This document shows positions 12,080 to 31,583 of a stretch of 64,000 bases of DNA, one piece after another. Position numbers and translations under genes: made by a program. How positions within the stretch are numbered: the first letter of the stretch is position 1; every line of letters starts with the position of its first letter. Under the pieces are notes generated by a model that saw only the letters and a program-made list of their open reading frames with translations, had not been told where the DNA came from and ran no database searches. Source of the DNA: a virus; IMG/VR virus record IMGVR_UViG_3300033145_000529, positions 84,198 through 148,197 of that record, one strand, 5' to 3'.

Positions 12080-12155
12080 GCGTCTATAGTGTTTAATGGT
12101 TTTAGCACATCACGCTTCCAACGTGATAGTCAGAGTTCGAATCTCTGTAGACGCT
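12080..12155 (+). tRNA. tRNA-Gly(TCC)
   Basis: Acceptor GCGTCTA/TAGACGC, anticodon loop with TCC, T-arm with TTCGAAT. No CCA encoded. A protein gene begins 4 bases downstream. It lies 10 kb before the main array. Confidence 0.9.
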
Positions 12156-12159
12156 CGAA

Positions 12160-12639
12160 ATGATTGGAGCAGTAGGTTATTGGGAGTCAAATGAGCGAAG
12201 TCCCTTTTCTGGTCGAATAGCGGATTTTGGACGTTGGGTTAATCAGTTGTATGCCTTTGGGCTAGATGCATTGCTTCTAATTGGAGCTGAGGGAGCAAAA
12301 ACACTTGGGTCAGTACAATCTGGTGCAGTTGTTGTCAGTTGGATGCAAAAATTAGAAGAAGCATCAATTACTTATCCCCAAGCAACAAGGGTTTTTGTGG
12401 AGCACAGAGGAATAATTCCAGGAGATATCAAGTATGAATTTCTCCATAATTTTAATCATCCACAAGGAGATGTAATTTATTTCTTTGGTGCGGATTCAAT
12501 GGTAACTGGTTTACCTGTAATTACAAAAAAAGATAAAGTTGTAACTATTTCATATCCGCATGAGGATGTCGCTCTATATGCTCAAGAGGCGTTGACTTGT
12601 GTCTTATATGATAGGATGGTAAAGAGTTTAAGTGGTTAA
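12160..12639 (+). CDS. possible SPOUT-like protein, 159 aa
   Basis: Starts 4 bases after tRNA-Gly without a ribosome binding site. The C-terminal half (YFFGADSMVTGLP, KVVTISYPHEDVALYAQEAL, LYDRM) resembles motifs 2 and 3 of SpoU-type knotted RNA methyltransferases (FG-x-E-x2-GL, then a glycine/serine loop and LYE), but the key residues differ. It sits between a tRNA and an IF3 domain, which would suit an RNA-modifying role. Fold assignment is tentative. Confidence 0.55.
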   Translation: MIGAVGYWESNERSPFSGRIADFGRWVNQLYAFGLDALLLIGAEGAKTLGSVQSGAVVVSWMQKLEEASITYPQATRVFVEHRGIIPGDIKYEFLHNFNHPQGDVIYFFGADSMVTGLPVITKKDKVVTISYPHEDVALYAQEALTCVLYDRMVKSLSG

Positions 12640-12916
12640 AAGGTTGAAAGAAATCCAAATTCGACCTAAAATAGCGGAACATGACTTCCAAACTAAGCTT
12701 CGTGCAATAAGAAGAATTTTGACCAGGAGCGAGGTTAAAGTTCAAATTTTCTTTCGTGGCAGGGAATTTACTCACCTCGAAATTGGAATTAATCTATTGC
12801 GTAGAGTTATCGAAGAGACTAGGGATATCGCTAAGGTAAAGGCAAGGCACGAGAAGGACAACCGATTTTTTATTATTTTGGTGTCCAATGGTCAAGAAAC
12901 CTTGCGAACAGTATGA
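12632..12916 (+). CDS. stand-alone IF3 C-terminal domain
   Basis: The 94-residue protein matches bacterial initiation factor IF3's C-domain: KEIQIRPKIAEHDFQTKL, VQIFFRGREFTHLEIG, LLRRVIEETRDIAKV, FIILVSN. Full IF3 is about 180 residues, so the N-domain and linker are absent. The IF3 C-domain binds the 30S platform and carries most of its activity. GTG start at 12632, overlapping the upstream stop. Together with bS21 at 20760 it suggests takeover or tuning of translation initiation. Confidence 0.9.
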   Translation: MVKRLKEIQIRPKIAEHDFQTKLRAIRRILTRSEVKVQIFFRGREFTHLEIGINLLRRVIEETRDIAKVKARHEKDNRFFIILVSNGQETLRTV

Positions 12917-18970: not shown

Positions 18971-20323
18971 ATGCTTTATAATTGTGATTGTTTAAAAGGA
19001 ATAAAAACTCTTAATGATAACAGTGTTGACTTAGTAGCCACCGACCCACCTTATGGTATAGGGTTTATGGGTAAGGACTGGGATAAGGCGTTACCTGATA
19101 AAGAGATATGGGCTGAGTGTCTGAGGGTGTTAAAGCCTGGAGCATTTGCCTTTGTAATGAGCATACCGAGAAGCGACTGTCTGAGCAGGATGATTATCAG
19201 CCTAGAGGATGCTGGATTTAGGGTAGACTTCAGTCCGATATATTGGGTTTATGCGTCAGGATTTCCAAAGGCAAAGAATATAGGGAAGGCGGTGGATAAG
19301 AGAATGGGGGCTGAGCGTGAAAGAACCCACCCTGATAATGAAAAGAGGTTTAAGGAATACAAAGAGCAAGACGGTAATGAGCGGAAAACTTTTGGTGAAT
19401 TAGATACTATGCCACTGACACCCCAAGCCAAAGCCCTAGATGGTAGTTATGGTGGGTTTCAACCCAAACCCGCAGTAGAAGTAATAATAGTCTGTATGAA
19501 GCCCTTGTCTGAAAAGACCTTTGTTGACCAATCCCTGAAGAACAGGAAGGGTATAACTTGGCTGGATGATTGTAGGATACCGTACGGTGGTGAAACCCCG
19601 AATATGGGTGGCAGGAAGAATGCCAAGATGGGTGGTGACCAACCCTATGGCTTCAAAATAGAGGGCAGACCTGATACACCAAATACAGTAGGTCGTTTCC
19701 CAGCCAATCTATTAGTCTCAGATGATGTGCTGAATGATGGGGGAGTAACAAGGAGTGGATTTATGAAGGGGAAGCATATAGCACCCAATTCTTATGGTGG
19801 ATTTAACACTCCTACTGAAACTCAGACCTACCCCGATTCAGGCTCATTTTCCCGCTACTTTGATTTAGATAAATGGTGGGAAGAAAGGGTAAAGGAACTC
19901 CCCAAACCTGCTCAACAGACCTTTCCATTTCTAATAGTCCCCAAAGCTAGTAAAAGTGAGAAGAATAGGGGGTTAAAAGGTGGTTCAGGTAGCAATACAT
20001 ATAATCGCAAGTGCCTTAATTGTGGCAAGTGGGAACGCAAACAGGGGTTGTCTGATAACTATACTTGCTATTGCGAGAAGCCAGATTGGGAACAACCATC
20101 GGGCAACAATCATCCCACAGTAAAACCCATCAAACTAATGTCTTACTTAATAACATTAGGCAGTCGTGAAGGTGATATCATTCTAGACCCGTTCTTAGGT
20201 TCAGGAACTACAGCAATTGCTTGTGAGATTGTGGGTCGTGATTGTATCGGTTATGAAATAGATAAAGGCTATTTTGATATAGCGATAAAAAGAGTGGAGG
20301 CATTTAAAAGTGCAAGAAATTAG
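18971..20323 (+). CDS. site-specific DNA methyltransferase (N4/N6, beta type)
   Basis: 450 residues. The catalytic DPPY occurs near residue 28 (VATDPPYGIGFMG) and the SAM-binding motif DPFLGSGTTAIAC is near the C-terminus, the order of beta-class enzymes. A CLNCGKWERKQGL..CYCEKP insert may bind zinc. The target base (N4-C or N6-A) cannot be told from sequence. With the Mom-like genes it may guard phage DNA from restriction. Confidence 0.9.
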   Translation: MLYNCDCLKGIKTLNDNSVDLVATDPPYGIGFMGKDWDKALPDKEIWAECLRVLKPGAFAFVMSIPRSDCLSRMIISLEDAGFRVDFSPIYWVYASGFPKAKNIGKAVDKRMGAERERTHPDNEKRFKEYKEQDGNERKTFGELDTMPLTPQAKALDGSYGGFQPKPAVEVIIVCMKPLSEKTFVDQSLKNRKGITWLDDCRIPYGGETPNMGGRKNAKMGGDQPYGFKIEGRPDTPNTVGRFPANLLVSDDVLNDGGVTRSGFMKGKHIAPNSYGGFNTPTETQTYPDSGSFSRYFDLDKWWEERVKELPKPAQQTFPFLIVPKASKSEKNRGLKGGSGSNTYNRKCLNCGKWERKQGLSDNYTCYCEKPDWEQPSGNNHPTVKPIKLMSYLITLGSREGDIILDPFLGSGTTAIACEIVGRDCIGYEIDKGYFDIAIKRVEAFKSARN

Positions 20324-20747
20324 AGGAGATATTTGGGAACAGCATAAACTTGGAAGATGGGCAATTATCACTACTAATAGTGATGTCAGAAAAGATGGAG
20401 CTTGTATTATGGGGCGTGGTATTGCAAAACAAGCAGCTGAAAGGTTTCCCAATTTACCATATAAGCTTGGTAACGCATTAAAAGCTAGTGGAAATAAGGT
20501 TTATGTCTTTGATGATTTGAAAATAATTACTCTACCTGTTAAGCACCATTGGAGAGGAAAAGCAGATCTTGGTCTTATTGAGAAATCCTTGCAACAGCTT
20601 GTTGCTTGGGTGGATACTCCACCACGAAAGCATGGTAAGTTTTATTTGCCAAGAGCGGGGTGTGGAAACGGTAGTCTTAATTGGTTTGATGTAAAACCGC
20701 TCTACGAGAAGTATTTAGATGATAGGTTTGTAGTAGTGCAACTATGA
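20310..20747 (+). CDS. macro-domain-like protein, 145 aa
   Basis: GTG start. GDIWEQHKLGRWAIITTNSD, then GACIMGRGIAKQAAERFP, and LPRAGCGNGSLNW fit small macro domains (ADP-ribose-binding; N, G-x-MG-x-G, and PR-x-GCG). It could remove ADP-ribose or its 1''-phosphate, the latter made in tRNA repair. Activity is inferred. Confidence 0.75.
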   Translation: MQEIRGDIWEQHKLGRWAIITTNSDVRKDGACIMGRGIAKQAAERFPNLPYKLGNALKASGNKVYVFDDLKIITLPVKHHWRGKADLGLIEKSLQQLVAWVDTPPRKHGKFYLPRAGCGNGSLNWFDVKPLYEKYLDDRFVVVQL

Positions 20748-20759: not shown

Positions 20760-21017
20760 ATGGTTTACGTTAAGATAAACAAATTAGAAGAAGATTTGTG
20801 CCGCAGGGGAGACAAGATGGGGGCGATAAGTTCTATGCTTGCTAGGTTTCATCATCAAATTCAGGCTTCGGGAATATTTAAAGATTTGAAAAAGCACGAA
20901 TCTTATGAGAAACCATCTCTAAAAAGACGTAGGAAAAAGAGAGAAGCGATGCTTCGAAGGATTAGAAAGGAGAGGAAAGATACCTTATATAAAACGGGAA
21001 ATAAGGGAAGAAGTTGA
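20760..21017 (+). CDS. rpsU: ribosomal protein bS21
   Basis: MVYVKINKLEEDLCRRGDKM, then QIQASGIFKDLKKHESYEKP, KRRRKKREAMLRRIRKERK match bS21: a short strand followed by a basic helix with the Y-E-K-P turn. 85 residues versus about 70 in bacteria, with a short tail. bS21 sits near the anti-Shine-Dalgarno, affecting initiation. Phage bS21 homologues are known. With the IF3 C-domain it suggests ribosome reprogramming. Confidence 0.88.
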   Translation: MVYVKINKLEEDLCRRGDKMGAISSMLARFHHQIQASGIFKDLKKHESYEKPSLKRRRKKREAMLRRIRKERKDTLYKTGNKGRS

Positions 21018-22561: not shown

Positions 22562-22635
22562 GGGGGTGTGGTGTAATGGTAACATAGCAATCTGATAAGT
22601 TGCTGTAGGAGGATCAAAACCTCCCATCCCTACCA
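22562..22635 (+). tRNA. tRNA-Ile(GAT)
   Basis: Acceptor GGGGGTG/CATCCCT, anticodon loop CTGATAA, discriminator A and encoded CCA. The T-loop is ATCAAAA instead of TTC-type, slightly unusual. First gene of the main array. Confidence 0.8.
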
Positions 22636-22729
22636 ATTAAAGTGGTGACTTCTTATTTTAAGTGATATTACGAATGCAAAATGTAGGTTGAGAGACTACG
22701 AAATGCACTGTAAAGATAATAAAACATTA

Positions 22730-22801
22730 AGAGGCGTAGCTAACAGGTAAAGCAGTTGGTTTACACCCAACGAAAAAGGAGTTCGAATCTCCTCGCCTCT
22801 A
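22730..22801 (+). tRNA. tRNA-Val(TAC)
   Basis: Acceptor AGAGGCG/CGCCTCT, anticodon loop TTTACAC, T-loop TTCGAAT; no CCA encoded. The 94 bases before it hold no gene I can see. Confidence 0.9.
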
Positions 22802-22861
22802 CCCAAGGTTGAGGTAAGTCACATCCAGGGCATTCTCACCAATAGCTACGGATTTGTACAG

Positions 22862-23053
22862 GTGGTGTCTGTACCAACCTCAACCTCTAGGAAAGTAGAT
22901 TTTGTTCTTTGTTGCATAATACCTCTAGATGTTTGGTATATAATTCCAATTGAAGACCTTGGTAGTAAGCACAATGTTCGTCTCTTTCTTGACATGATTG
23001 ATTCTAAATCTAAGTATTCTAAATATAAAGAAAATTGGGCAGTATTGGAGTAG
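22862..23053 (+). pseudogene. second PD-(D/E)XK endonuclease C-terminal fragment
   Basis: FVLCCIIPLDVWYIIPIEDL..SKSKYSKYKENWAVLE matches the closing part of PDDEXK group I-intron-type endonucleases (DF-x-VAY-x-IP-x-D-x-WY-x-IP, SKSKY..Y-x-E-x-W). The N-terminal catalytic half is absent. Its stop lies 7 bases inside tRNA-Ser. Confidence 0.5.
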
Positions 23054-23134
23054 TGCCTGAGTGGTTTAAGGGGACGGTTTGCTAAACCGTTGGGCGTAAA
23101 TGTCCCGTAAGTTCGAATCTTATCTACTCCGCCA
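23047..23134 (+). tRNA. tRNA-Ser(GCT)
   Basis: Acceptor GGAGTAG/CTACTCC, anticodon loop with GCT, long variable arm, discriminator G and encoded CCA. Normal class II structure. Confidence 0.92.
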
Positions 23135-23144
23135 CATAAAAGGC

Positions 23145-23173
23145 TTGACTTGCTTAAAGGCTTATGATATAAT
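23145..23173 (+). promoter_or_regulatory. sigma70-type promoter P5
   Basis: TTGACT, 17-base spacer ending GGCTTATGA, then TATAAT. The first in-frame ATG of the next gene (23172) overlaps the -10 itself, so the transcript from P5 would lack that start; read-through from the tRNA operon may supply it. Confidence 0.8.
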
Positions 23174-23528
23174 GGAAGAGAAGTGGGTAACTGTCAGCAG
23201 CGAATATCTTAATAGAAAGTCTAAGTATAAGCATTGGGTACTTGGTTGTTGTGTTAAATGTAGAAATATTCAGGTCTACAGAGTTACAGATAGTGTAGTA
23301 GAAGCAAAGAAGTGGTGGGCTGTTGAGAAATGTGATAAGTGTGGAGGTCTTTGTGGTGTTTGTATCTTGAGTAAATACCAAAAACCACCTGGGTTTGCTA
23401 GAAAGTGTAAGAAGTGTAATTTTAGGTTCACTTGTGCTACTATTAGGATAAAGGAAATACCCTCTGTCTTAGTGGGGTTAACGACAGTAAGATTTGAATC
23501 CGAGGATGTTATAAAAGAGGATGTGTAG
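23172..23528 (+). CDS. zinc-site plus CRF-tag protein, 118 aa
   Basis: Contains CCVKCRN, CDKCGGLCGVC and then the CRF tag CKKCNFRFTCAT (Cys79, 82, 88). I take ATG 23172; the longer frame to 23100 runs through tRNA-Ser. The stop TAG at 23526-23528 is supplied by bases 8-10 of tRNA-Lys. Rich in Cys, probably metal binding. Confidence 0.7.
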   Translation: MEEKWVTVSSEYLNRKSKYKHWVLGCCVKCRNIQVYRVTDSVVEAKKWWAVEKCDKCGGLCGVCILSKYQKPPGFARKCKKCNFRFTCATIRIKEIPSVLVGLTTVRFESEDVIKEDV

Positions 23529-23593
23529 CTCGATTTTGGTAGAGCCTCGGTCTTTTAAACCGAACGGTGTGGGTTCGAGTCCCATCACATCCA
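23519..23593 (+). tRNA. tRNA-Lys(TTT)
   Basis: Acceptor GGATGTG/CACATCC, anticodon loop CTTTTAA, T-loop TTCGAGT; discriminator A, no CCA. A protein ATG follows 2 bases later. Confidence 0.92.
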
Positions 23594-23595
23594 CG

Positions 23596-23928
23596 ATGGA
23601 TGAATACAAACATAAACAAGTAAAAATTAAAATACCTCCGTACAATTACTATGGTTATGTTGATGAGGGTATCGTTGATCTTGTGCAGTCTTTGTGGCGA
23701 CAAAAAATTATGACTGGCATGAGTTGCCAAGAGATTGATGGTAACATATGGTTAATGTTTGACTCCAAGAAGGATTTTGTTAAGTTCTTGGGGAAGGTTG
23801 ATTTTGTTGATATAACATTAAGTGATATTAGGTTGCGGAGACGAGATAAACGTATAGCTTATGAGTATGTGTCAGTTAGATTTCCAATTGATTTAAAGAA
23901 TAAAATTAAAAAGAGAATAGATGATTAG
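23596..23928 (+). CDS. hypothetical protein, 110 aa, starting at a tRNA 3' end
   Basis: ATG lies 2 bases after the tRNA-Lys discriminator, with no Shine-Dalgarno, so a leaderless start after tRNA processing is likely. The mixed alpha/beta protein has no recognised family (KIKIPPYNYYGYVDEGIVDL). It ends 3 bases before the next tRNA. Confidence 0.65.
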   Translation: MDEYKHKQVKIKIPPYNYYGYVDEGIVDLVQSLWRQKIMTGMSCQEIDGNIWLMFDSKKDFVKFLGKVDFVDITLSDIRLRRRDKRIAYEYVSVRFPIDLKNKIKKRIDD

Positions 23929-23931
23929 ATT

Positions 23932-24008
23932 GGGTGTGTAGCTAAATTGGTTAAGGCACTGGTCTCTTAAACCAGACATTAAGGGTTCGAGCCCCTTCAC
24001 ACCCACCA
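23932..24008 (+). tRNA. tRNA-Lys(CTT)
   Basis: Acceptor GGGTGTG/CACACCC, anticodon loop CTCTTAA, discriminator A and encoded CCA. Second lysine acceptor. Confidence 0.92.
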
Positions 24009-24091
24009 AAGGACATAAGTAGTTCCTATTAAATAACACAGAGGTCTACTTCGGTAGGCTTCTGTATTGAAAAAAGTACTACTCGTCCTTT
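24008..24091 (+). ncRNA. structured RNA element 1 of a covarying tandem pair
   Basis: AAAGGAC (24008-24014) pairs with GTCCTTT (24085-24091), then AGTAGT (24018-24023) with ACTACT (24078-24083). Inside, a 12-bp hairpin is capped by TTCG. TTCCTATTAAA is unpaired and recurs in the next element. No known class recognised; could be a riboswitch-like leader of the 653-aa gene. Confidence 0.55.
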
Positions 24092-24103
24092 AATAATCGG
24101 TAT

Positions 24104-24160
24104 AATGGCATAAGCAGTTCCTATTAAAAAGTTGATTGAACAAATTTACTGCTCGCCATT
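24104..24160 (+). ncRNA. structured RNA element 2 of a covarying tandem pair
   Basis: AATGGC (24104-24109) pairs with GCCATT (24155-24160) and AGCAGT (24113-24118) with ACTGCT (24148-24153). Compared with element 1 the middle base pair changes T-A to C-G on both strands, a compensated change. It shares the TTCCTATTAAA loop. It lies just before the ATG at 24176; TTCCT could pair with GGGAA in the ribosome-binding region. Confidence 0.55.
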
Positions 24161-24175
24161 TAGGGAAGGGAAAGC

Positions 24176-26137
24176 ATGGAGTCAACAATTAAATTATTTA
24201 GAGCACTACCAATAACAACTAAGGAAAAGAAGTTTGATGAAAAATTGATGGAAGCAACCATTAAGCATGGCTTTGTATTTGCACCAGAGATTGTTGCTAA
24301 CTATTCTAACTATGATGAATTGATTGAAAAAGTTGAAAGATTAGTTGGGGTAAGCTCTGAGCAAATGAATAGTTCGTTCCACAAGGCTTGGGCTAAGGTT
24401 AGAAACACAGGTATGGAACAATTAGTAGTAGAACAGATAGCACACTATCTGACTACCTATGGCAAAGAGAACCCTGAAGCATATCTGATTGAAAAGGGTA
24501 TACAGTGGGGTGTTGATGACCTTTCTGATAAGGTGTCAAATCTAGATGACATAGAATTAGATAAAGTCCAAGATGCTAACTATGTTTATATCCCTAACGA
24601 GGTACTTGACATACCAGATGTAGAGTTGGATACGATTAAACTTATCGTAATCAAAGGATACACAAAAGCTGAACTAAAGGGCAAGCTGCTTGCTTTGTTA
24701 GGACTTGGAGTTGCTTTGGGGGAAGATACGATACAAGCTGTTGTAGAGGTAGCCACGTTTGTCGGAGTTGATGACAAAGATATTGAAAAGGTTAAGAACA
24801 AGGAAGTAAATACCGCCTTGTATGACTACTTAGGTCTTTTTCCAGAAAATCCAGTTGCGTTTTTAAGGTTTATTGTTTTCAAAGCAGCAAGTAAAACGCT
24901 TTTGATAAAAGATTATAATTTGATTCAAGCGATTAGGGAAAGCAATAACTTGAATGTAATTAAACTATTTGATGACTACGAAAAGAAATATGGATTAGAA
25001 AGGTTAGCTGAGATATTTAATAGGTTCAAACCACTTTTCTTAGCTTTTAGAACAAATGAAAGACTCAAGGTAGTAGTTAATAGGATAAGAAGACTTGCTG
25101 TGAGATACCACAAACCTCTTCCAGAAGATTTCCTTAACACTGTTACAGCTAGGGTAGGAAATAGTGAGAAGATAACCCAAGGTAAATTACAATCTGAACT
25201 GAGGAGAGTAAATGTCTTCAGGAAGATACGATTAGCTTATGCACTAAAATTTAGGACAAAAGACGTGGATTCTATTTTATATAGGATAAGGAATGGTAAG
25301 GGATATGCTACTGAGTTCACCTTCGGCAATCAGACTGAAGCTCAAAGAGTATTGGACATTGTATTAGACTCAATTGCCCGTGATGTTAGTAAGAATGTAA
25401 AGGACAAGAAAATATACATTCCAGAGCATATAAATTATAGTCTACCCGCAACTGAGAAGCAGTTTACTGGTAATTTCCCATCAGGAACTTGTGTGTCACT
25501 AACTGATAATATGATTGCTGGTATCAATTGGCATAACGTTAAACACAATAGGATTGACCTTGACCTGTCTTTATTATCAGTTACAGGTAAAATTGGTTGG
25601 GATTCTTCTTATAGAACAGAAGAAGGTGATGTGCTATTCTCTGGTGATATGACTGATGCTTGTAACGGAGCATCGGAACTTTTCTATGTTAAGAAGCAGA
25701 CTAAGAAATCGTTTATAATATTCGTTAATTACTATAATTTTGACGAGGCTATAAAAGTACCGTTCAAGATATTAGTTGCACATGAGGCTACTAAGAATCT
25801 TAGAAAAAATTATATGGTTGACCCTAATAATGTTGTAGCAATTACCGAATCAAAAATTGACCAGAAGCAAAAAATACTGGGGTTGCTAATCGTTACAACA
25901 ACAGGAAGCAAGTTTTATTTTGTTGAGGCAAATATAGGCAGGTCAATAACATCAAGTGGTACTGAATTTGCCACACGAAGCAGAAAGTATCTACTAGACT
26001 TTTATGAAAACACTATTATGTTAAGTGATGTTCTTACTAAAGCTGGTGCTAAACTTGTTGGTGACAGGGATGAAGCAGATATAGACTTATCACCAGAAAC
26101 GCTTGAAAAGGATACCATATTAACTATGCTTAGGTAA
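24176..26137 (+). CDS. large protein with possible TerD-like domain, 653 aa
   Basis: The largest protein of the array. Residues about 1-400 are mainly helical. Around 455-520, RIDLDLSLLSVTGKIGWDSS, DVLFSGDMTDACNGASELFY, FIIFVNYYNF recalls the D-x-D and GD-x-T pattern of TerD-type calcium-binding beta sandwiches; this is tentative. GGGAAGGGAAAG precedes the ATG, and two structured RNAs lie in its leader, so expression is probably controlled. Role unknown. Confidence 0.75.
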   Translation: MESTIKLFRALPITTKEKKFDEKLMEATIKHGFVFAPEIVANYSNYDELIEKVERLVGVSSEQMNSSFHKAWAKVRNTGMEQLVVEQIAHYLTTYGKENPEAYLIEKGIQWGVDDLSDKVSNLDDIELDKVQDANYVYIPNEVLDIPDVELDTIKLIVIKGYTKAELKGKLLALLGLGVALGEDTIQAVVEVATFVGVDDKDIEKVKNKEVNTALYDYLGLFPENPVAFLRFIVFKAASKTLLIKDYNLIQAIRESNNLNVIKLFDDYEKKYGLERLAEIFNRFKPLFLAFRTNERLKVVVNRIRRLAVRYHKPLPEDFLNTVTARVGNSEKITQGKLQSELRRVNVFRKIRLAYALKFRTKDVDSILYRIRNGKGYATEFTFGNQTEAQRVLDIVLDSIARDVSKNVKDKKIYIPEHINYSLPATEKQFTGNFPSGTCVSLTDNMIAGINWHNVKHNRIDLDLSLLSVTGKIGWDSSYRTEEGDVLFSGDMTDACNGASELFYVKKQTKKSFIIFVNYYNFDEAIKVPFKILVAHEATKNLRKNYMVDPNNVVAITESKIDQKQKILGLLIVTTTGSKFYFVEANIGRSITSSGTEFATRSRKYLLDFYENTIMLSDVLTKAGAKLVGDRDEADIDLSPETLEKDTILTMLR

Positions 26138-26139
26138 GT

Positions 26140-26215
26140 GGGAGTATCGTCTAGGGGTTTAGGACACCAGTTTCTCAGACTGGTAACGGGAGTTCGATTC
26201 TCCCTACCCCTACCA
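26140..26215 (+). tRNA. tRNA-Glu(CTC)
   Basis: Acceptor GGGAGTA/TACCCCT with one A-C mismatch, anticodon loop TTCTCAG, discriminator A and CCA whose A is also the A of the next ATG. Confidence 0.85.
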
Positions 26216-26424
26216 TGTGGGTATACATTTATGGAGATAAGATTAAACGAGTTGTGTATGGGTGGGTATGCCCCCATTGTGGCACGACTTGGATAGGTAA
26301 TTTTCTAAGTACTTGTCCAAAATGCAAATCTACACTTTGTCTGAGTCAAGAATTTATAACAAAAGCTAATGAAAAAGCGTGGAAAGCGTATGATTTACAA
26401 AAGATTAGTGCGAAACTTCATTAG
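26215..26424 (+). CDS. zinc-ribbon protein, 69 aa, starting in tRNA CCA
   Basis: The ATG shares its A with the 3' CCA of tRNA-Glu. No other start or ribosome-binding site exists. The protein has CPHCGTTW..CPKCKSTL, a zinc ribbon. This is the clearest case of a start codon fused to a tRNA end. Confidence 0.65.
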   Translation: MWVYIYGDKIKRVVYGWVCPHCGTTWIGNFLSTCPKCKSTLCLSQEFITKANEKAWKAYDLQKISAKLH

Positions 26425-26500
26425 GAGGTTATGTGATGAAACTATTTAGTTACTTTGGTGTAAATAACAAGAAATGATGGGTATGAAGCTTTTATAGGTG

Positions 26501-26574
26501 GGGAACGTAGCTCAACGTGGAGCAGTGGTCTTATATGCCAAAGGTTGTAGGTTCAAATCCTACCGTTCCTACCA
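26501..26574 (+). tRNA. tRNA-Ile(TAT)
   Basis: Acceptor GGGAACG/CGTTCCT, anticodon loop CTTATAT, T-loop TTCAAAT, discriminator A, encoded CCA. UAU reads AUA directly; most bacteria use a modified CAU tRNA instead. Confidence 0.82.
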
Positions 26575-26575
26575 T

Positions 26576-26652
26576 CCCCCTATAGTCTAATGGAATTAAA
26601 ACGGTGGGCTACGAACCCACAGTTGCGAGTTCGAATCTCGCTAGGGGGTCCA
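26576..26652 (+). tRNA. tRNA-Arg(ACG)
   Basis: Acceptor CCCCCTA/TAGGGGG, anticodon loop CTACGAA, discriminator T, encoded CCA. One base separates it from the previous tRNA, so they share a precursor. Confidence 0.9.
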
Positions 26653-26670
26653 GTAAACCCATTTCGGGGG

Positions 26671-26791
26671 TGTGAGTAGTCTCACTATACGTGTAGGGAG
26701 TATGAGAAGCCGTGTACAGAGTGTACATTGATGTTACGAAACTATCATACGACAGCCTTGCTGTTGAAGTAAGCGTTCGCTTAATTGTATG
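26671..26791 (+). ncRNA. multi-hairpin leader enclosing a start codon
   Basis: Hairpins: GTGAG/CTCAC (26672-26685), GTACA/TGTAC (26714-26726), ACAGC/GCTGT (26752-26764), TAAGC/GCTTA (26770-26783). The last two sit in a stem CATAC/GTATG (26746-26750 with 26787-26791) whose 3' arm contains the ATG of the next gene. No ribosome binding site precedes that ATG, suggesting structure-controlled initiation or a separate RNA. Confidence 0.45.
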
Positions 26792-27025
26792 ACAATAAAC
26801 AAAAGAGCTTACTCACCCACCGAAATAGGTTTACGAATGGAGAAGGTAGTACCATTAAGACAACAAATAACTAAGGTTGTTCAGAATAATCCTCATTTAG
26901 ATAATAGTTTTCTTGTGTCAGGTTGTCTTTGTTCTCATTGGAACGACCTTGAAGAATGCGATAAATGTCTTGTAAGATTTTATTGTTATACTCATTTTAG
27001 AGTGAAAATTGCCCCTGTAGTGTAA
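26789..27025 (+). CDS. CRF-tag protein, 78 aa
   Basis: CDKCLVRFYCYT (Cys57, 60, 66) lies near the C-terminus, preceded by SGCLCSHW, which adds two cysteines. The first half is basic and helical. The last six residues and the stop lie inside tRNA-Arg(TCT). The start is in a stem (26671-26791). Confidence 0.7.
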   Translation: MTINKRAYSPTEIGLRMEKVVPLRQQITKVVQNNPHLDNSFLVSGCLCSHWNDLEECDKCLVRFYCYTHFRVKIAPVV

Positions 27026-27086
27026 ATGGAGAACACATTAGTCTTCTAAGCTAATAGTCCGAGTTCAAATCTCGGCAGGGGTGCCA
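27011..27086 (+). tRNA. tRNA-Arg(TCT)
   Basis: Acceptor GCCCCTG/CAGGGGT, anticodon loop CTTCTAA, discriminator G, encoded CCA. Reads AGA. Its 5' end encodes the tail of the upstream protein. Confidence 0.9.
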
Positions 27087-27087
27087 G

Positions 27088-27243
27088 AGTACTTAGGATG
27101 CGGTAGCGTTTACAAGGTGAAAACTGATAGGTATTAGCTGAAATAACGTCAAAAGCACTTTGATAGAAAAGCTAATAGTGTGGAATACCGAGAACTATTA
27201 GCTAGGCACAGAGGAAAAACCGATAGCCTTTATCCTAAGTACC
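27088..27243 (+). ncRNA. candidate structured RNA B between tRNAs
   Basis: AGTACTTAGGAT (27088-27099) pairs with ATCCTAAGTAC (27232-27242), 11 bp perfect. Inside, AGCTAATAGT pairs with ACTATTAGCT (27170-27179 with 27194-27203) and TCAAA with TTTGA. No ORF. It begins 1 base after tRNA-Arg CCA and ends 6 bases before the next tRNA-like gene, so it can be released by tRNA processing. Confidence 0.6.
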
Positions 27244-27249
27244 CTTTAT

Positions 27250-27330
27250 CTCGCTGTAGTCGGGGCGGTTTCCTAAACCGTTATCCGTAAATCGGAACTG
27301 TAACTGTGGGTTCGAATCCCATCAGCGAGT
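27250..27330 (+). tRNA. atypical tRNA, anticodon CCT
   Basis: Acceptor CTCGCTG/CAGCGAG and a T-arm (TTCGAAT) are good, and the stem GCGGT/ACCGT holds a 7-base loop TTCCTAA. Only about 8 bases lie where a D-arm should be, and the variable region is about 23 bases. CCT would be Arg, but this could be decayed or specialised. Confidence 0.5.
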
Positions 27331-27364
27331 CGTATGCTAGTGTAGTCGAATTAGGCAAGTCATA

Positions 27365-27650
27365 ATGAATGATTTAGAAAAGAGAGAATACCAAAGGAAT
27401 TGGTATCATAATCATAAGAAGCAAGCTAGAGCTTGCAGGAATAGACGCAAAGACAAGATAATGGTATAAAGAATATAAGAGTACGCTATTTTGTCATGAA
27501 TGTGGAGAGAATCACCCATGTTTAACCATGATAGCCACATCCAATGTTTTATCATCATTTGGATGATGAAAGCTCAAGCAAGCAGGTTGGTCTATTGAAC
27601 GTATAAAAGAGGAAATAGATAAATGTGAGAATTGTCATAGAAAAGGTTCT
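27365..27650 (+). pseudogene. broken HNH endonuclease
   Basis: MNDLEKREYQRNWYHNHKKQ.. runs to a TAA; then other frames give STLFCHECGENHPC, FHHLDDE, GWSIERIKEEIDKCENCHRK. Together these are an HNH nuclease of the same type as 34707-35036, with at least two frameshifts. Confidence 0.7.
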
Positions 27651-27665
27651 TGGGGGAAATGTTTT

Positions 27666-27743
27666 GCTGGTGTAGCCCAATAAGGTAGAGGCAACAGCCT
27701 TAGAAGCTGTTCAGTGAGAGTCCGAATCTCTCCACCAGTACCA
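27666..27743 (+). tRNA. tRNA-Leu(TAG)
   Basis: Acceptor GCTGGTG/CACCAGT, anticodon loop CTTAGAA, discriminator A, encoded CCA. The variable region is only 5 bases, whereas bacterial Leu tRNAs normally have a long arm. Confidence 0.82.
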
Positions 27744-27755
27744 AAAGAGAATAAG

Positions 27756-28145
27756 ATGTATTTATACACGACAACTGACAATAGAACGATGAAAAGACAC
27801 TGGCATTTTGGTGGGAGAGAGTGTGATGGGTGTCAATATAGGTTTGAATGCTTTACTAGTAATAGAATCCATATTAAACTTGTGAAGGTGGATGTTACAG
27901 AGATACCTCACCTTTACCAACAGTGTGATAGATTCAAAGCGGAATTCCATTTACCAAAGTGTTTAAGACTTGGACTCTATAAACAAATAGCGGATTGTGG
28001 TTTTTGGAGTAGGAGTTACAGACAAAATTTCGGTGATGGATTCAAACTAGGAGCAATAATTGAAGAAGAAGATGAATATATTGATATAGAACGTGCGTGG
28101 GTGAAGTTTCCAGTTACTCTGTTTATAACTGGTACAATGAGATAA
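27756..28145 (+). CDS. CRF-tag protein, 129 aa
   Basis: ATG 27756 follows the tRNA-Leu CCA by 12 bases with AAGAGA before it. The CRF tag CDGCQYRFECFT (Cys23, 26, 32) is N-terminal. The C-terminal 80 residues (CDRFKAEFHLPKCLRLGLYK, WVKFPVTLFITG) look like a beta-rich domain. It ends 1 base before tRNA-Asp. Confidence 0.75.
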   Translation: MYLYTTTDNRTMKRHWHFGGRECDGCQYRFECFTSNRIHIKLVKVDVTEIPHLYQQCDRFKAEFHLPKCLRLGLYKQIADCGFWSRSYRQNFGDGFKLGAIIEEEDEYIDIERAWVKFPVTLFITGTMR

Positions 28146-28146
28146 T

Positions 28147-28219
28147 GGTCTATAGGTGTTAATGGTGAGCATGCATCCCTGTCAAGGATGAGGGACGGGC
28201 TCGAAACCCGTATAGACCG
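28147..28219 (+). tRNA. tRNA-Asp(GTC)
   Basis: Acceptor GGTCTAT/ATAGACC, anticodon loop CTGTCAA, discriminator G, no CCA. An ATG occurs 2 bases downstream (28222) but opens only a 19-codon frame overlapping the next gene. Confidence 0.92.
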
Positions 28220-28255
28220 CTATGAAAAATATAGATGACCTTAAAGGAGAGGAAC

Positions 28256-28486
28256 ATGAGAGAATTAAAAGTCACAGATGATGAGCTAGATATGTTACAC
28301 GGAGCACTTGTACTTCAATCGTGTTGTAATGGTGTATACTGTGTAAGTTCGTATGAAAAAGCTTTAAATGGTGATAAGGAAGAACTAGATGAGTATAAAT
28401 TTCATGGACATACTTTTGAGCAAATAAAAGAAGGAATTGCTCCACTTCTTTCTGTTATGGAGAAGGTTAAAACACTTTGGGAGTAA
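28256..28486 (+). CDS. hypothetical protein, 76 aa
   Basis: AAAGGAGAGG lies 4 bases before ATG 28256, so this start is preferred. Acidic, helical protein with no known motif (MRELKVTDDELDMLHGALVL). It may be coupled to the 19-codon frame that begins beside tRNA-Asp. Confidence 0.6.
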   Translation: MRELKVTDDELDMLHGALVLQSCCNGVYCVSSYEKALNGDKEELDEYKFHGHTFEQIKEGIAPLLSVMEKVKTLWE

Positions 28487-28507
28487 GCTAAGAAAGAATG
28501 AGGGTAA

Positions 28508-28583
28508 GGCACTGTAGCTAATTGGCAAAGGCGGTCGCCTGCAAAGCGATTTTAAGTGGGTTCGATTCCCACCAGTGCTTCCA
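28508..28583 (+). tRNA. tRNA-Cys(GCA)
   Basis: Acceptor GGCACTG/CAGTGCT, anticodon loop CTGCAAA, discriminator T, encoded CCA. Given the many cysteine-rich small proteins, a phage Cys tRNA is fitting. Confidence 0.92.
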
Positions 28584-28593
28584 AAGGAGATAA

Positions 28594-29112
28594 ATGAAAG
28601 ATTATTATAAGATTTTAGGTGTGGCTAGGGACGCTTCTCCAGAGGAGATAAAAAGGGCATATAGGAGACTAGCGAAACAATGGCATCCTGATGTAAATAA
28701 ATCTCTAGAAGCAGAAGCGAAATTTAAAGAAATAAATGAAGCTTACGAATCTTTAACGTCAAAGAGAACGCTGAATGGTACATTTGACCCGTTCGATGTT
28801 TTCTTCAGAGAGTTTAGTTCTTTTGGTGGCATCTTCAGTGGTCAAAATATTAATGTAATTAGAACAAGAAGGATAAGCTTATCTGTTGATTGGTTAACCA
28901 TGATTTTAGGTGGTGAGATTGTTGTTAATTTGGATGGGGAAAGAATTACATTGAAAGCTCCCCCACTATCTCAAGCAGGGCAAACAATTCACATTAAAGT
29001 TTATGGTGTTGATAACTATTTTACTTTGCAACCAAATTTACCAAGGTCATTGAGCGAGGAACAGAAAAAGAGTCTGGAAAATTTGAGAAATACATTGAAA
29101 GATGAATACTAA
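28594..29112 (+). CDS. DnaJ-type co-chaperone, 172 aa
   Basis: J domain at residues 1-65: [23 protein letters not shown] motif in WHPDVNK, and the YESLTS end. No Gly/Phe region or zinc fingers; the C-terminal ~100 residues form one substrate-binding-like beta domain. It likely directs host DnaK to a phage protein. AAAGGAG follows the tRNA CCA directly. Confidence 0.85.
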
Positions 29113-29346
29113 ACAAATTGGTGATATATCATAAGCTAATATAGAAGTTAAATTACTTTCCAAAGGATATACTGTTTTAGTCCCACGTGATAATGATAGG
29201 TATGATTTAGTAATAGATAAAGATGGTGCGTTTAAAAGGATACAGTGTAAGACTAGTCGTTTAAGGAATGGAGCAATCGTGTTCAAAACGGTCAGTTCTG
29301 AGTACCATAGAGGTGGATGACTTGGGCTAAAGATTATGAAATATAA
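29102..29346 (+). pseudogene. PD-(D/E)XK endonuclease with stop and internal deletion
   Basis: [10 protein letters not shown], then TAA at codon 11 (29132-29134, probably GAA to TAA), then ANIEVKLLSKGYTVLVPRDN, DRYDLVIDKDGAFKRIQCKT, RLRNGAIVFK: the catalytic N-half of the PDDEXK_5 family. After TGA, a shifted frame gives MTWAKDYEI, the family's usual C-terminus. The middle (VYC.. segment) is deleted. Confidence 0.7.
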
Positions 29347-29348
29347 TT

Positions 29349-29424
29349 TCTGGTGTACTACAATTGGTAGTAGAATCGGCTGTTAACCGAGCATATGTTG
29401 GTTCGAATCCAACCATCAGAGCCA
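29349..29424 (+). tRNA. tRNA-Asn(GTT)
   Basis: Acceptor TCTGGTG/CATCAGA, anticodon loop CTGTTAA, discriminator G, encoded CCA. Confidence 0.92.
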
Positions 29425-29428
29425 AAAT

Positions 29429-29500
29429 GGGGGTATCTGCTAGTGGCTAGGCACTCAGGTTTTCACCCTGAAAACGGGAGTTCGATTCTCCCTACCCCTG
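29429..29500 (+). tRNA. tRNA-Glu(TTC)
   Basis: Acceptor GGGGGTA/TACCCCT, anticodon loop TTTTCAC, discriminator G, no CCA. Four bases after tRNA-Asn. Confidence 0.92.
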
Positions 29501-29607
29501 CTCATATTAAACTAGTTCATGAGATTGCTGATGATGTTCTAATAAGAATTATTAATGATATAAATAACTTATTGGCAGTGTGTCCGAATCGTCACAAAAG
29601 AATATGA
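29501..29607 (+). pseudogene. C-terminal remnant of an HNH endonuclease
   Basis: The frame HIKLVHEIADDVLIRIINDI, NNLLAVCPNRHKRI ends as many phage HNH proteins do (N-x2-NL-x-VCPN-x-H). No start or catalytic core remains; upstream is tRNA-Glu. Confidence 0.45.
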
Positions 29608-29617
29608 TAATAAGAAT

Positions 29618-29692
29618 AGCGGGGAGATTGTTGGTTATCCGTTAGCTCTCATAAAGCTAACTACGTGGGTTCAATTCCCACCTCCGCCACCA
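29618..29692 (+). tRNA. tRNA-Met(CAT)
   Basis: Anticodon loop CTCATAA in stem TAGCT/AGCTA. Acceptor AGCGGGG/CTCCGCC with an A-C mismatch at the first pair. It lacks the three G-C anticodon-stem pairs of initiators, so elongator Met or an Ile (modified CAU) is likelier. CCA shares its A with the next ATG. Confidence 0.82.
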
Positions 29693-30063
29693 TGAAAATA
29701 TTTATATTAGATGATATGCCTAATAGACAACAATTTTTATCTTGTGCTATGTCTAAAATATACGGTGGTGATTCACATTGTATAGTTGCAGATAGTTTTA
29801 GTAATGCTGTCAAGGTATTTGAAGAACATAAGGAATTTGATATTATGTTTTTAGACCATGATTTGGGTGGGAAGATTTATGTTGATTCAGAAGACCCTAA
29901 TACTGGTTATCAAGTAGTTAAATACATGGCAGAGCATGACATTAAAGGTAAAGAAATTATTGTGCATAGTTTAAACTTTGCGGGAGTTCAAAATATGTTA
30001 GCAATATTACCAAAGCACGCAAAATATGTACCATATACCATTTTACACTCTTCAAGATTATAG
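29692..30063 (+). CDS. cyclic-phosphate-processing receiver-like protein, 123 aa
   Basis: MKIFILDDMPNRQQFL, DIMFLDHDLGG, TGYQVVKYMAEHDIKGKEII, VHSLNFAGVQNM fit the receiver-like 'cREC' family, which I recall being linked with RNA-end 2',3'-cyclic phosphate processing. The start ATG shares its A with the CCA of tRNA-Met. In a tRNA array it could assist tRNA repair, but that is inference. Confidence 0.72.
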   Translation: MKIFILDDMPNRQQFLSCAMSKIYGGDSHCIVADSFSNAVKVFEEHKEFDIMFLDHDLGGKIYVDSEDPNTGYQVVKYMAEHDIKGKEIIVHSLNFAGVQNMLAILPKHAKYVPYTILHSSRL

Positions 30064-30065
30064 AT

Positions 30066-30137
30066 TCTCCTGTAGTCTAATAGGTAGGACGGTTGGTTCT
30101 GAACCAGCTATTTCAGGTTCGAATCCTGACAGGAGAA
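30066..30137 (+). tRNA. tRNA-Gln(CTG)
   Basis: Acceptor TCTCCTG/CAGGAGA, anticodon loop TTCTGAA, discriminator A, no CCA. Confidence 0.9.
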
Positions 30138-30208
30138 CAGGAAAATAAGGTGTATCGGCAAGGTAGGATAGATGAGGAACTTAAAATACTGTAGTAATAC
30201 TTTGTTGA

Positions 30209-30382
30209 ATGAAAAGATACGCTTGTTTGTATTGTAGTTATATCTATTATAGAGTCAAACCTAGATGGTGCAGAAGGTGTTTTAGTATCAGTATTTATGA
30301 AATAGATACAAATGGTTATGTCAAGAGAGGTTTAGACTTAGGTGATAAGACGCAAGAGAAGTTAAAGAATTGCGTATGGTGA
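30209..30382 (+). CDS. small zinc-ribbon protein, 57 aa
   Basis: CLYCSYIYYRVKPRWCRRCF forms a compact CxxC..CxxC ribbon; the C-terminus is charged. Its stop TGA falls within the first bases of tRNA-His. No clear ribosome binding site. Confidence 0.5.
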   Translation: MKRYACLYCSYIYYRVKPRWCRRCFSISIYEIDTNGYVKRGLDLGDKTQEKLKNCVW

Positions 30383-30453
30383 CGGTCATTCAATGGTAGG
30401 AAGCCTCGCTGTGACCGAGGTAATGTAGGGTTCGAATCCCTCCCGTCACCCCA
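30378..30453 (+). tRNA. tRNA-His(GTG)
   Basis: G-1 encoded, acceptor GTGACGG/CCGTCAC, C73, anticodon loop CTGTGAC. CCA overlaps the ATG of the next gene. Confidence 0.92.
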
Positions 30454-30974
30454 TGAATCTAAGAGATAACATAGAAGCTTTAGGTTGCAGAATAGAAGGT
30501 GATTTCACTTTACATTCTGGTGCGAAGAGTAATGTAAAGTGGGATATTGAAAAGCTTTATTCTGATTATGCTTTACACGAGAGATTGTTTTACCTCAGAC
30601 CTTGGCACAGGGAAATCTTAAAATTTATAGGAGGTAGAGATGTCCTTATCGTGGGTATTCCTACTGGTGGAGAGAGATTGATGTATGATTTTGGTAGGCA
30701 CTATAAACTTAGATATGGTGACTCAAAATACCACCTTGCTCCCTGTATGAAAAATTGGGATGCTATTATAATAGATGATGTGTTGACTACTGGAGCAACT
30801 ATTAGGGAATTATTCGATAAAGTTCACATTCTAGGTGTAGCAGTTCTTGTTAACCGTTCAAAGCTAACTAAAATCAATAATAAACCTATTATCTCAGGAG
30901 TTTTTGCTGATGAATTTGATGGGAGATTCAAAGCCTGTAATTGCACCCAAGTATTGCATTGTGGCGGAGGTTAG
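30453..30974 (+). CDS. orotate-phosphoribosyltransferase-like protein
   Basis: The PRPP-binding signature IIIDDVLTTGATIRE is present, with GDFTLHSGAKSNVKWDIEKL near the N-terminus as in PyrE (F.L.SG..S..Y.D). 173 residues. It may make OMP or act on another base. The ATG shares the A of tRNA-His CCA, with no ribosome binding site. The C-terminus has CNCTQVLHC, unusual for PyrE. Confidence 0.8.
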   Translation: MNLRDNIEALGCRIEGDFTLHSGAKSNVKWDIEKLYSDYALHERLFYLRPWHREILKFIGGRDVLIVGIPTGGERLMYDFGRHYKLRYGDSKYHLAPCMKNWDAIIIDDVLTTGATIRELFDKVHILGVAVLVNRSKLTKINNKPIISGVFADEFDGRFKACNCTQVLHCGGG

Positions 30975-30981
30975 CAGAGGC

Positions 30982-31010
30982 TTGACTTTTAACGTGGCTT
31001 GTGGTATTAT
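30982..31010 (+). promoter_or_regulatory. sigma70-type promoter P6
   Basis: TTGACT, 17-base spacer ending GGCTTGTGG, then TATTAT. The G of GTG 31017 is 7 bases after the -10, the expected +1. Confidence 0.8.
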
Positions 31011-31016
31011 AATAGT

Positions 31017-31373
31017 GTGGACATAGTAATAGACCAAGAAGATACAATCTACCGTTATAAGTGCAACGAGCAATGTGATAATTGTCCGATGCGGTATGTT
31101 TGCTGGACACACAGGAAAGATGGTAATACTCTCCACTTAAAAGGACAATCCTATTTAGACCCGATGACTCGTGCTAGAGTGGGTTTGTTCGCAGGCAACC
31201 AAGAGACTTTATGTCCTTGGTGTTATCGAATAGAAAAGAAGGATGTAGCACGTAAACTTGGCGAAACTTGTCCCACTTGTGGTCATTATATAACATGTGA
31301 TAGTTGTATCAGAGATTGTAACCTCAGAAATGACCTCTATAACACTGATGGTGATTGCCTTATGACAAAGTAA
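31017..31373 (+). CDS. CRF-tag and zinc-site protein, 118 aa, probably leaderless
   Basis: The tag CDNCPMRYVCWT (Cys20, 23, 29; RY variant) is near the N-terminus. Two more Cys clusters follow (CPWCYRI..CPTCGHYITC, CDSCIRDC). GTG 31017 is at the expected +1 of P6; an upstream ATG (30999) lies inside the promoter. So the mRNA would be leaderless. Confidence 0.75.
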   Translation: MDIVIDQEDTIYRYKCNEQCDNCPMRYVCWTHRKDGNTLHLKGQSYLDPMTRARVGLFAGNQETLCPWCYRIEKKDVARKLGETCPTCGHYITCDSCIRDCNLRNDLYNTDGDCLMTK

Positions 31374-31385
31374 GGAGAGGAATAT

Positions 31386-31583
31386 ATGGAAATACACGAA
31401 GGAAAACAGACACGAAATTACAGAATGTTCATCAAAATTGGGACTAAAAAACAATTAGATGCTATTGGAAAAAGTGGTGCTGGTGGGTTTAAGAAGGTTG
31501 AGCTTATGATTACTAGCAACTTTGATTTAATGGTTTCTGATTGCGATAAACCTTATTGGGTGGAACTGAAGTATAAAACTTAA
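31386..31583 (+). CDS. hypothetical protein, 65 aa
   Basis: AAGGAGAGG before ATG 31386. Beta-rich (YRMFIKIGTKKQLDAIGKSG, KKVELMITSNFDLMVSDCDK). Not recognised. Confidence 0.6.
   Translation: MEIHEGKQTRNYRMFIKIGTKKQLDAIGKSGAGGFKKVELMITSNFDLMVSDCDKPYWVELKYKT

What the first reader, a model, noticed from the sequence alone, without database searches (positions are those of the whole stretch)
20760..21017. Phage bS21 with IF3 C-domain, CCA enzyme and 19-amino-acid tRNA set
One window encodes bS21, IF3-C, a CCA-adding enzyme, about 30 tRNA-type genes for all amino acids but Tyr, and a probable RNA-repair receiver. bS21 lies near the anti-Shine-Dalgarno on the ribosome. This is an unusually full translation kit and would favour phage mRNAs.
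Basis: partly seen in the sequence, partly recalled or inferred. Interest (0 to 1): 0.75.

Follow-up and report, generated by a model that had tools for sequence, protein, structure and literature searches.

The report
Phage translation kit with tRNA-punctuated genes
A phage carries genes that plug into the host's protein-making machinery (a ribosomal protein, part of an initiation factor, 29 tRNAs and the enzyme that finishes tRNAs), as some large phages are known to do; less expectedly, many of its small genes start exactly where a tRNA gene ends and have no ribosome-binding site, an arrangement that resembles animal mitochondria.

Summary
The window is the last 64 kb of a 148-kb IMG/VR phage record. 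It encodes bS21 (20760-21017), a lone IF3 C-domain (12632-12916), a CCA-adding enzyme (38050-39447, minus strand), a cREC protein and 29 convincing tRNA genes for 19 amino acids. The missing tRNA-Tyr is a real local loss: two relatives with the same tRNA order carry it between Phe and Ala. bS21 and IF3-C are under purifying selection. Elsewhere the record has a tmRNA, an Rnl2-like ligase and RtcB in two ORFs. Such kits are known from large phages, so this is a member of a known kind; host and ribosome incorporation stay untested. New here: in six related phages (bS21, then tRNA array) 60 of 161 tRNAs abut or overlap the ATG of the next ORF (6.4 expected), against 1 of 201 in sixteen other tRNA-bearing phage loci. 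Only 2 of the 60 have a Shine-Dalgarno motif, against 153 of 204 other genes, and the starts are ATG-only. This suggests mitochondria-like tRNA punctuation: tRNA excision would release near-leaderless mRNAs while the phage's CCA enzyme completes the tRNAs. Geometry and statistics are shown; RNA processing is inferred.

The parts
20760..21017 (+). bS21 (85 aa); ATG start with AAGG 8 nt upstream; N-terminal segment about 11-13 residues longer than E. coli bS21
   Evidence: PF01165 46.7 bits; alignment and dN/dS with six relatives; SD
20310..20747 (+). PHROG 335 protein (annotated phosphatase; Macro-like by my reading), directly upstream of bS21 here and in G018
   Evidence: phrog_335 E 1.5e-26; G018 order
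12632..12916 (+). IF3 C-terminal domain alone (94 aa), GTG start; N-domain absent from this ORF
   Evidence: PF00707 78.6 bits over residues 5-85; dN/dS 0.11 against G018
38050..39447 (-). CCA-adding enzyme / tRNA nucleotidyltransferase (465 aa), downstream of the array
   Evidence: PF01743, PF12627, PF01966; phrog_2244; relatives
12080..12156 (+). tRNA-Gly(TCC), separate from the main array; ORF 12160-12639 starts 3 nt after it
22562..36176 (+). main tRNA array: 28 tRNA genes (Ile gat, Val tac, Ser gct, Lys ttt, Lys ctt, Glu ctc, Ile tat, Arg acg, Arg tct, Leu tag, Asp gtc, Cys gca, Asn gtt, Glu ttc, Met cat, Gln ctg, His gtg, Leu caa, Trp cca, Leu taa, Phe gaa, Ala tgc, Pro tgg x2, Thr tgt, Thr cgt, Ser tga, Gln ttg) interleaved with small ORFs; 17 of the 29 tRNA genes of the window encode CCA
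33523..33602 (+). 80-nt gap where relatives G005 and G018 carry tRNA-Tyr(GTA) plus an ORF that begins at its 3' end: local loss of Tyr
29665..30063 (+). cREC (cyclic-phosphate-processing receiver) ORF; its likely true start ATG at 29692 is the last A of the tRNA-Met CCA
   Evidence: PF20274 57 bits; start geometry
30453..30974 (+). phosphoribosyltransferase-like ORF starting on the last A of the tRNA-His CCA
31666..31899 (+). 77-aa ORF starting on the last A of the tRNA-Leu(CAA) CCA
26215..26424 (+). 69-aa ORF starting on the last A of the tRNA-Glu(CTC) CCA
23596..23928 (+). 110-aa ORF starting 1 nt after tRNA-Lys(TTT)
31965..32102 (+). 45-aa ORF starting directly at the 3' end of tRNA-Trp; N-terminus conserved in G018 at the same junction
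34525..34659 (+). 44-aa ORF starting on the last A of the first tRNA-Pro CCA; runs into the next tRNA gene, so doubtful

Best explanation
This is the translation module of a lineage of 133-153-kb phages: bS21 upstream, a long tRNA array, a CCA-adding enzyme downstream and, in four of six phages, a lone IF3 C-domain a few kb before bS21. Most likely bS21 and IF3-C join host 30S subunits and tune start-site choice for phage mRNAs, the tRNAs supply a nearly complete set if host tRNAs are scarce or cut, and the CCA enzyme completes those without an encoded CCA (12 of 29 in the window). The array also seems to act as an expression scaffold: many small ORFs begin with ATG within about 5 nt of a tRNA 3' end, with no Shine-Dalgarno motif. 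I infer that cutting the tRNA out just after its discriminator base leaves a near-leaderless mRNA (5'-CC-AUG...), and that the CCA enzyme then finishes the tRNA, so that one transcript gives both; this is the tRNA punctuation logic of animal mitochondria. Shown: gene content, conservation, geometry, SD deficit, ATG-only starts. Inferred: RNA cleavage, leaderless translation, ribosome incorporation.
For: Families. bS21 in six phages, CCA enzyme in the window and in the four relatives where it was sought or read, IF3-C in four. Near-identical tRNA order in the window, G005 and G018 although the ORFs between have largely turned over. Purifying selection. Abutment 60/161 against 6.4 expected, binomial p 1.5e-41; 1/201 against 8.2 expected in 16 other loci. 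SD 2/60 against 153/204. ATG 60, GTG 1, TTG 0, although 56 of 247 called genes use GTG or TTG. The enrichment ends after +3. Enzyme-like N-termini begin at the junction: MKIFILDDM (cREC), MKKVIVFDLDGT, MRLVIISDTHGL, MIYLIGDLHLDH. Only 6 of 60 have an SD-led in-frame alternative start.
Against: No RNA or protein data. 95 of 161 tRNA genes in the six phages encode CCA, unlike animal mitochondria, and bacterial RNase Z is often inhibited by an encoded CCA (general knowledge); a cut after CCA would destroy the overlapping ATG. IF3 on the 30S discriminates against leaderless mRNA, though IF3 binding to the 50S in 70S ribosomes is reported to promote it (both as cited in PMC8138138), and bS21 is reported as required for SD mRNAs (PMC4929434), so the two factors need not serve the leaderless ORFs. 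G005 and G029 lack a detected IF3-C yet have abutting ORFs. The host is unknown. Compactness alone could give overlapping starts, though other dense tRNA arrays do not show it.
Confidence: 0.55

Rival explanations
1. Ordinary large-phage translation kit: tRNAs, CCA enzyme, bS21 and IF3-C boost phage translation, and the tRNA-ORF junctions are only the result of compact gene packing; the ORFs are translated from the unprocessed polycistronic message.
For: Comparable kits are published (PMC7162821, PMC7824862). Gene-dense phage; start-stop overlaps are common in phages (general knowledge).
Against: Other dense tRNA arrays show 1/201 abutments. 58 of 60 abutting ORFs lack SD in a genome that otherwise uses it. 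A folded tRNA of 73-88 nt separates each ORF from the gene before it, which argues against translational coupling.
Confidence: 0.3
2. The junctions mark an insertion or recombination habit: small ORF cassettes are exchanged at tRNA 3' ends by recombination between the shared T-arm sequences or with help of HNH nucleases, so ORFs sit flush with tRNA ends.
For: tRNA order is conserved while most ORFs between them differ between the window, G005 and G018; the cREC ORF follows tRNA-Met in the window but tRNA-Asn in G026 and G027; Tyr tRNA and its ORF are absent together from the window.
Against: Does not by itself explain ATG-only starts or how SD-less ORFs are translated; compatible with punctuation rather than exclusive of it.
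Confidence: 0.35
3. The tRNAs mainly serve codon adaptation to an AT-rich phage codon usage in a GC-richer host.
For: The phage favours A/T-ending codons: ATA is 37% of Ile and AGA plus AGG 68% of Arg codons, and the array holds Ile(TAT) and Arg(TCT) tRNAs.
Against: The set covers 19 amino acids, not only codons that would be rare in a host; the host is unknown, so no direct comparison.
Confidence: 0.35

Closest known systems
Huge phages with translation genes (Al-Shayeb et al. 2020, PMC7162821)
   Same: Encode S21, IF1/IF3, CCA-adding enzyme, tRNAs (up to 67); S21 predicted to redirect initiation; most phages there have canonical SD
   Different: That study concerns genomes over 200 kb; here the records are 133-153 kb, IF3 is the C-domain only, the array is interleaved with tRNA-abutting ORFs, and I saw no tRNA synthetase among the genes I examined (the whole gene set was not scanned)
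bS21 phages of Bacteroidetes (Chen et al. 2022, PMC9723584)
   Same: Phage bS21 thought to replace the host protein
   Different: There bS21 lies on the reverse strand among terminase, portal, protease and capsid genes and the host group usually lacks SD; here bS21 precedes a tRNA array on the same strand and the phage uses SD
Pelagiphage HTVC008M and environmental viral bS21 (Mizuno et al. 2019, PMC6375957)
   Same: Viral bS21; incorporation into E. coli ribosomes shown for that protein
   Different: tblastn with the window bS21 found no match in the GenBank phage collection
Jumbo-phage RNA repair systems (PMC7824862)
   Same: RtcB, Rnl2, cREC, CCA enzyme, IF3 and TROVE proteins described there
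   Different: No tRNA-ORF abutment described in the parts I read; tmRNA is not mentioned there
tRNA-rich cyanophages S-CRM01 and S-CBWM1
   Same: Long tRNA arrays with small ORFs between; share the 653-aa protein (28-30% identity); S-CBWM1 also has a CCA-type enzyme
   Different: No tRNA-abutting ORFs (0 of 23 and 0 of 35)
Animal mitochondrial tRNA punctuation (general knowledge; leaderless background in PMC4633059)
   Same: tRNAs abut ORFs that lack SD; a CCA enzyme finishes the tRNAs
   Different: CCA is encoded in many of these tRNA genes; most other genes of the phage use SD; no RNA evidence

Membership tests
Ribosomal protein bS21 | PF01165 above cut-off and (F/Y)EKP-type core | tested here: met
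   46.7 bits against 27; SYEKPS core aligned with E. coli FYEKPT
Ribosomal protein bS21 | Incorporation into host 30S | not testable with these tools
   needs ribosome proteomics or cryo-EM; host unknown
Initiation factor IF3 | C-terminal 30S-binding domain | tested here: met
   PF00707 78.6 bits; RPK, KLR, FRGRE and RV motifs kept
Initiation factor IF3 | N-terminal domain in the same protein | tested here: not met
   the 94-aa ORF matches IF3_C over residues 5-85 and nothing else; so it is an IF3 C-domain protein, not a full IF3
CCA-adding enzyme | PolyA_pol head plus RNA-binding domain | tested here: met
   PF01743, PF12627, PF01966; phrog_2244 E 8e-69
CCA-adding enzyme | Adds CCA rather than poly(A) | not testable with these tools
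   needs biochemistry; 12 of 29 window tRNA genes lack an encoded CCA
tRNA genes (not pseudogenes) | Covariance score above Rfam cut-off | tested here: met
   27 at 41.9-67.6 bits against 29; Ser TGA and Met CAT rest on ARAGORN
Translation-kit phages | Ribosomal protein, initiation factor and tRNAs in a phage genome with structural genes | tested here: met
   phage minor tail protein domain PF10145 in the same record; kit genes
Bacteroidetes bS21 phages (Chen 2022) | bS21 on the opposite strand amid terminase/portal/capsid genes | tested here: not met
   bS21 lies on the same strand as the tRNA array and its neighbours
tRNA punctuation | tRNAs directly abut ORFs more than chance gives | tested here: met
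   60/161 against 6.4 expected; controls 1/201
tRNA punctuation | ORFs lack SD | tested here: met
   2/60 against 153/204
tRNA punctuation | CCA not encoded | tested here: not met
   95 of 161 tRNA genes encode CCA; so mitochondria-like in layout, not identical
tRNA punctuation | tRNA excision generates the mRNA 5' ends | not testable with these tools
   no transcript data
Ro60/TROVE (653-aa ORF 24176-26137) | HEAT-type TROVE ring | tested here: inconclusive
   N-terminal model: Ro60 rows at Z 5.7-6.0 (158-236 residues), tied with unrelated helical proteins; no Pfam match
TerD fold (653-aa ORF) | TerD-like C-terminal domain | tested here: met
   top structural matches are TerD or TerD-like chains, Z 7.7-9.8 over about 145 residues; fold only, no function implied

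The most novel reading that the evidence does not exclude
A phage lineage uses mitochondria-like tRNA punctuation: its tRNA array is both a tRNA source and the 5'-end generator of near-leaderless, SD-less mRNAs for many small proteins, made possible by the phage's own CCA-adding enzyme and supported by its own bS21 and IF3 C-domain.
Probability: 0.45. Interest if true: 0.85.

Novelty: new variant of a known kind. Interest (0 to 1): 0.62.

Why it matters
Why phages carry whole sets of tRNAs and single ribosomal or initiation proteins is still debated. In this lineage the tRNAs are physically tied to SD-less ORFs next to bS21, IF3-C and a CCA enzyme, which gives a directly testable reason for keeping tRNA genes and a CCA enzyme: making mRNA 5' ends. 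It would also be a case of tRNA punctuation in phages of bacteria, an arrangement otherwise described mainly from mitochondria.

Tried and rejected
The 653-aa protein as a tRNA-array partner: it lies inside tRNA arrays in S-CRM01 and S-CBWM1, but most of its 78 viral loci have no tRNA nearby (ThyX control loci 2 of 22), so a strict link was dropped; its identity as Ro60 stayed inconclusive. The tRNA-like element at 27249-27331 as the missing tRNA-Tyr: rejected, no GTA anticodon loop and no likeness to relatives' tRNA-Tyr, while the true Tyr site is the Phe-Ala gap. Host by IF3-C: nearest cellular IF3s are only 43-52% identical and scattered over phyla. bS21 in GenBank phages: none. Pfam and PHROGs for the Cys-motif proteins: no family for the motif. 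Literature searches for phage-encoded tmRNA, for tRNA-abutting phage ORFs and for leaderless mRNA combined with tRNA processing in phages found no prior report; most subscription papers are not in that library.

Full report
What was checked. The window is bases 84198-148197 of a 148,197-base IMG/VR virus record, classed as linear. bS21 at 20760-21017 is a clear PF01165 match (46.7 bits, cut-off 27); 12632-12916 is an IF3 C-terminal domain alone (PF00707, 78.6 bits); 38050-39447 (minus strand) is a CCA-adding enzyme with head, RNA-binding and HD domains; 29665-30063 is a cREC protein. ARAGORN finds 27 tRNAs. Rfam adds Gln(TTG) at 36099-36173 and a relaxed ARAGORN run adds Ser(TGA) at 35503-35585. 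Together 29 tRNAs serve 19 amino acids; only Tyr is missing, and the other 84 kb of the record hold no tRNA. Rfam scores of 42-68 bits speak against pseudogenes.

The missing Tyr. Relatives G018 (IMGVR 3300017963_000316) and G005 (3300027917_001949) have almost the same tRNA order as the window, and both carry tRNA-Tyr(GTA) between Phe and Ala. In the window that space is 80 nt. In both relatives an orthologous ORF starts right at the 3' end of tRNA-Tyr; it too is absent from the window.

Rest of the kit. Outside the window the record holds a tmRNA (114.6 bits), an Rnl2-type RNA ligase and an RtcB split over two neighbouring ORFs. Twelve of the 29 window tRNA genes lack an encoded CCA, which gives the CCA enzyme a plain task. 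By my own gene calling 153 of 204 genes outside the tRNA region have an SD-like motif, so the host presumably reads SD. IF3-C homologues in the genome collection are at best 43-52% identical and scattered over phyla, so the host remains unknown and no codon-usage comparison with it was possible.

A lineage. A scan for a Cys motif (see Noticed in passing) and protein searches gathered further members: 3300033145_000476 (G026, 138.6 kb), 3300033149_001989 (G027, 133.8 kb) and 3300027861_000001 (G029, 149 kb). bS21 is present in the window phage, G005, G018, G026, G027 and G029; IF3-C in the window phage, G018, G026 and G027; the CCA enzyme was found in G026, G027 and G029 and read directly in G005; it was not searched for separately in G018. 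IF3-C does not turn up in G005 or G029. Records may be fragments. bS21 dN/dS is about 0.12-0.19 and IF3-C 0.11 between the closest pairs, so both genes are kept by selection. All seven bS21 sequences compared share an N-terminal segment longer than in E. coli.

tRNA-abutting ORFs. Many ORFs between the tRNAs begin exactly at a tRNA 3' end, often with the A of ATG being the last A of the encoded CCA. In six phages 60 of 161 tRNAs have an ATG ORF of at least 40 codons at -2 to +5 of the 3' end, against 6.4 expected from random positions in the same sequence (p 1.5e-41). Sixteen other tRNA-bearing phage loci, S-CRM01 and S-CBWM1 among them, give 1 of 201 against 8.2 expected. The starts are ATG only (60 ATG, 1 GTG, 0 TTG) and the excess ends after +3, although 23% of called genes use GTG or TTG (the caller favours ATG, so this share is if anything low). 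Only 2 of the 60 have an SD motif, against 153 of 204 other genes (Fisher p 3e-25). Enzyme-like N-termini start at the junction: cREC MKIFILDDM after tRNA-Met in the window and after tRNA-Asn in G026 and G027, HAD-type MKKVIVFDLDGT and phosphoesterase-type MRLVIISDTHGL in G027, MIYLIGDLHLDH in G018 (domain names for the last three are mine). Only six of 60 have an SD-led in-frame alternative within 25 codons. Of 109 tRNA spacers of at least 130 nt, 58 start with such an ORF. The ORFs themselves turn over while tRNA order stays.

Mechanism. Shown: gene content, conservation, geometry, SD deficit, ATG-only starts. Inferred: the array is transcribed as one RNA; cutting after the discriminator base frees an mRNA with a leader of 1-7 nt (distribution), usually CC-AUG, and the CCA enzyme completes the tRNA. 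This is the layout of mitochondrial tRNA punctuation. Leaderless starts in mycobacteria accept only ATG or GTG (PMC4633059), in line with the missing TTG starts here. Against it: most of these tRNA genes encode CCA; IF3 on the 30S disfavours leaderless mRNA while IF3 bound to the 50S of 70S ribosomes is reported to favour it (as cited in PMC8138138); bS21 is reported as needed for SD mRNAs (PMC4929434). bS21 may therefore serve the SD-led majority of phage genes rather than the abutting ORFs, and G005 and G029 have abutting ORFs without a detected IF3-C.

Novelty. S21, IF3, CCA enzymes, tRNA sets and RNA repair in large phages are published (PMC7162821, PMC6375957, PMC9723584, PMC7824862), so the kit is a new member of a known kind. 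I found no report of tRNA-abutting SD-less ORFs in phages, with the limit that most subscription papers are not in the searched library. I therefore rate the whole a new variant of a known kind.

Limits. Gene calls outside standard tools come from my own script. Random-position nulls do not model all constraints; the control loci from other phages are the stronger comparison, but they are not matched for GC or gene density and some are small. The six phages are related, so their junctions are not fully independent, although most ORFs at the junctions are not orthologous between the three arrays compared.

Noticed in passing
window 3477, 10785, 22239, 23406, 26957, 27822, 31074, 35976, 37437, 41022-62058 and further copies across the 148-kb record; relatives L125, L126, L202, L204, L206: About 30 otherwise unlike ORFs of the record carry the motif C-x2-C-x2-R-F-x-C-[FYWL]-T (24 of 247 called genes; 0.0 expected in shuffled proteins), at any position in the protein, including a UDG C-terminus and a SWIM/intein protein. 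In viral contigs a DNA form of the motif recurs several times per contig only in this lineage; 30 of the 60 tRNA-abutting ORFs carry it. No Pfam or PHROG family.
   Followed up: partly
L003:12028-12382 (record 32028-32382, outside the window); L121, L122, L289, L290: The phage tmRNA encodes an unusually long tag of about 35-41 aa, conserved at the protein level in five phages (core LFVVLxEGLLF...EDRFSAEPV), mostly without the usual ALAA end; ARAGORN does not call it.
   Followed up: partly
window 24176-26137: 653-aa protein inside the tRNA array: AlphaFold pLDDT 90; C-terminal TerD fold (Z 9.8), N-terminal helical part weakly Ro60-like. 78 viral loci, among them S-CRM01 and S-CBWM1; also in Phass-1.
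   Followed up: partly
L002:16663-17208 and 17223-17846 (minus strand): RtcB RNA ligase split over two adjacent ORFs in this record, while G005 and G029 have an uninterrupted RtcB; frameshift, assembly error or real split not decided.
   Followed up: no
window 27249-27331: tRNA-like element: 7-bp acceptor and T-arm, CCT in a possible anticodon loop, long variable region, no normal D-arm; identical but for one base in the near-duplicate contig.
   Followed up: partly
record 130375-132543 (window about 46178-48346, minus strand); L016: Run of five unlike ORFs that begin with MK(I/V)RxGF(V/I)SNSSS (one after an upstream extension); more in G018.
   Followed up: no
window 61995-63428 (minus strand): SWIM-type protein interrupted by an intein with a LAGLIDADG domain, and a Cys motif near its C-terminus.
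   Followed up: no
window 12632; L010:223; L197, L198: The IF3-C ORFs of four phages appear to start with GTG or TTG rather than ATG, which recalls the rare AUU start of bacterial infC.
   Followed up: no
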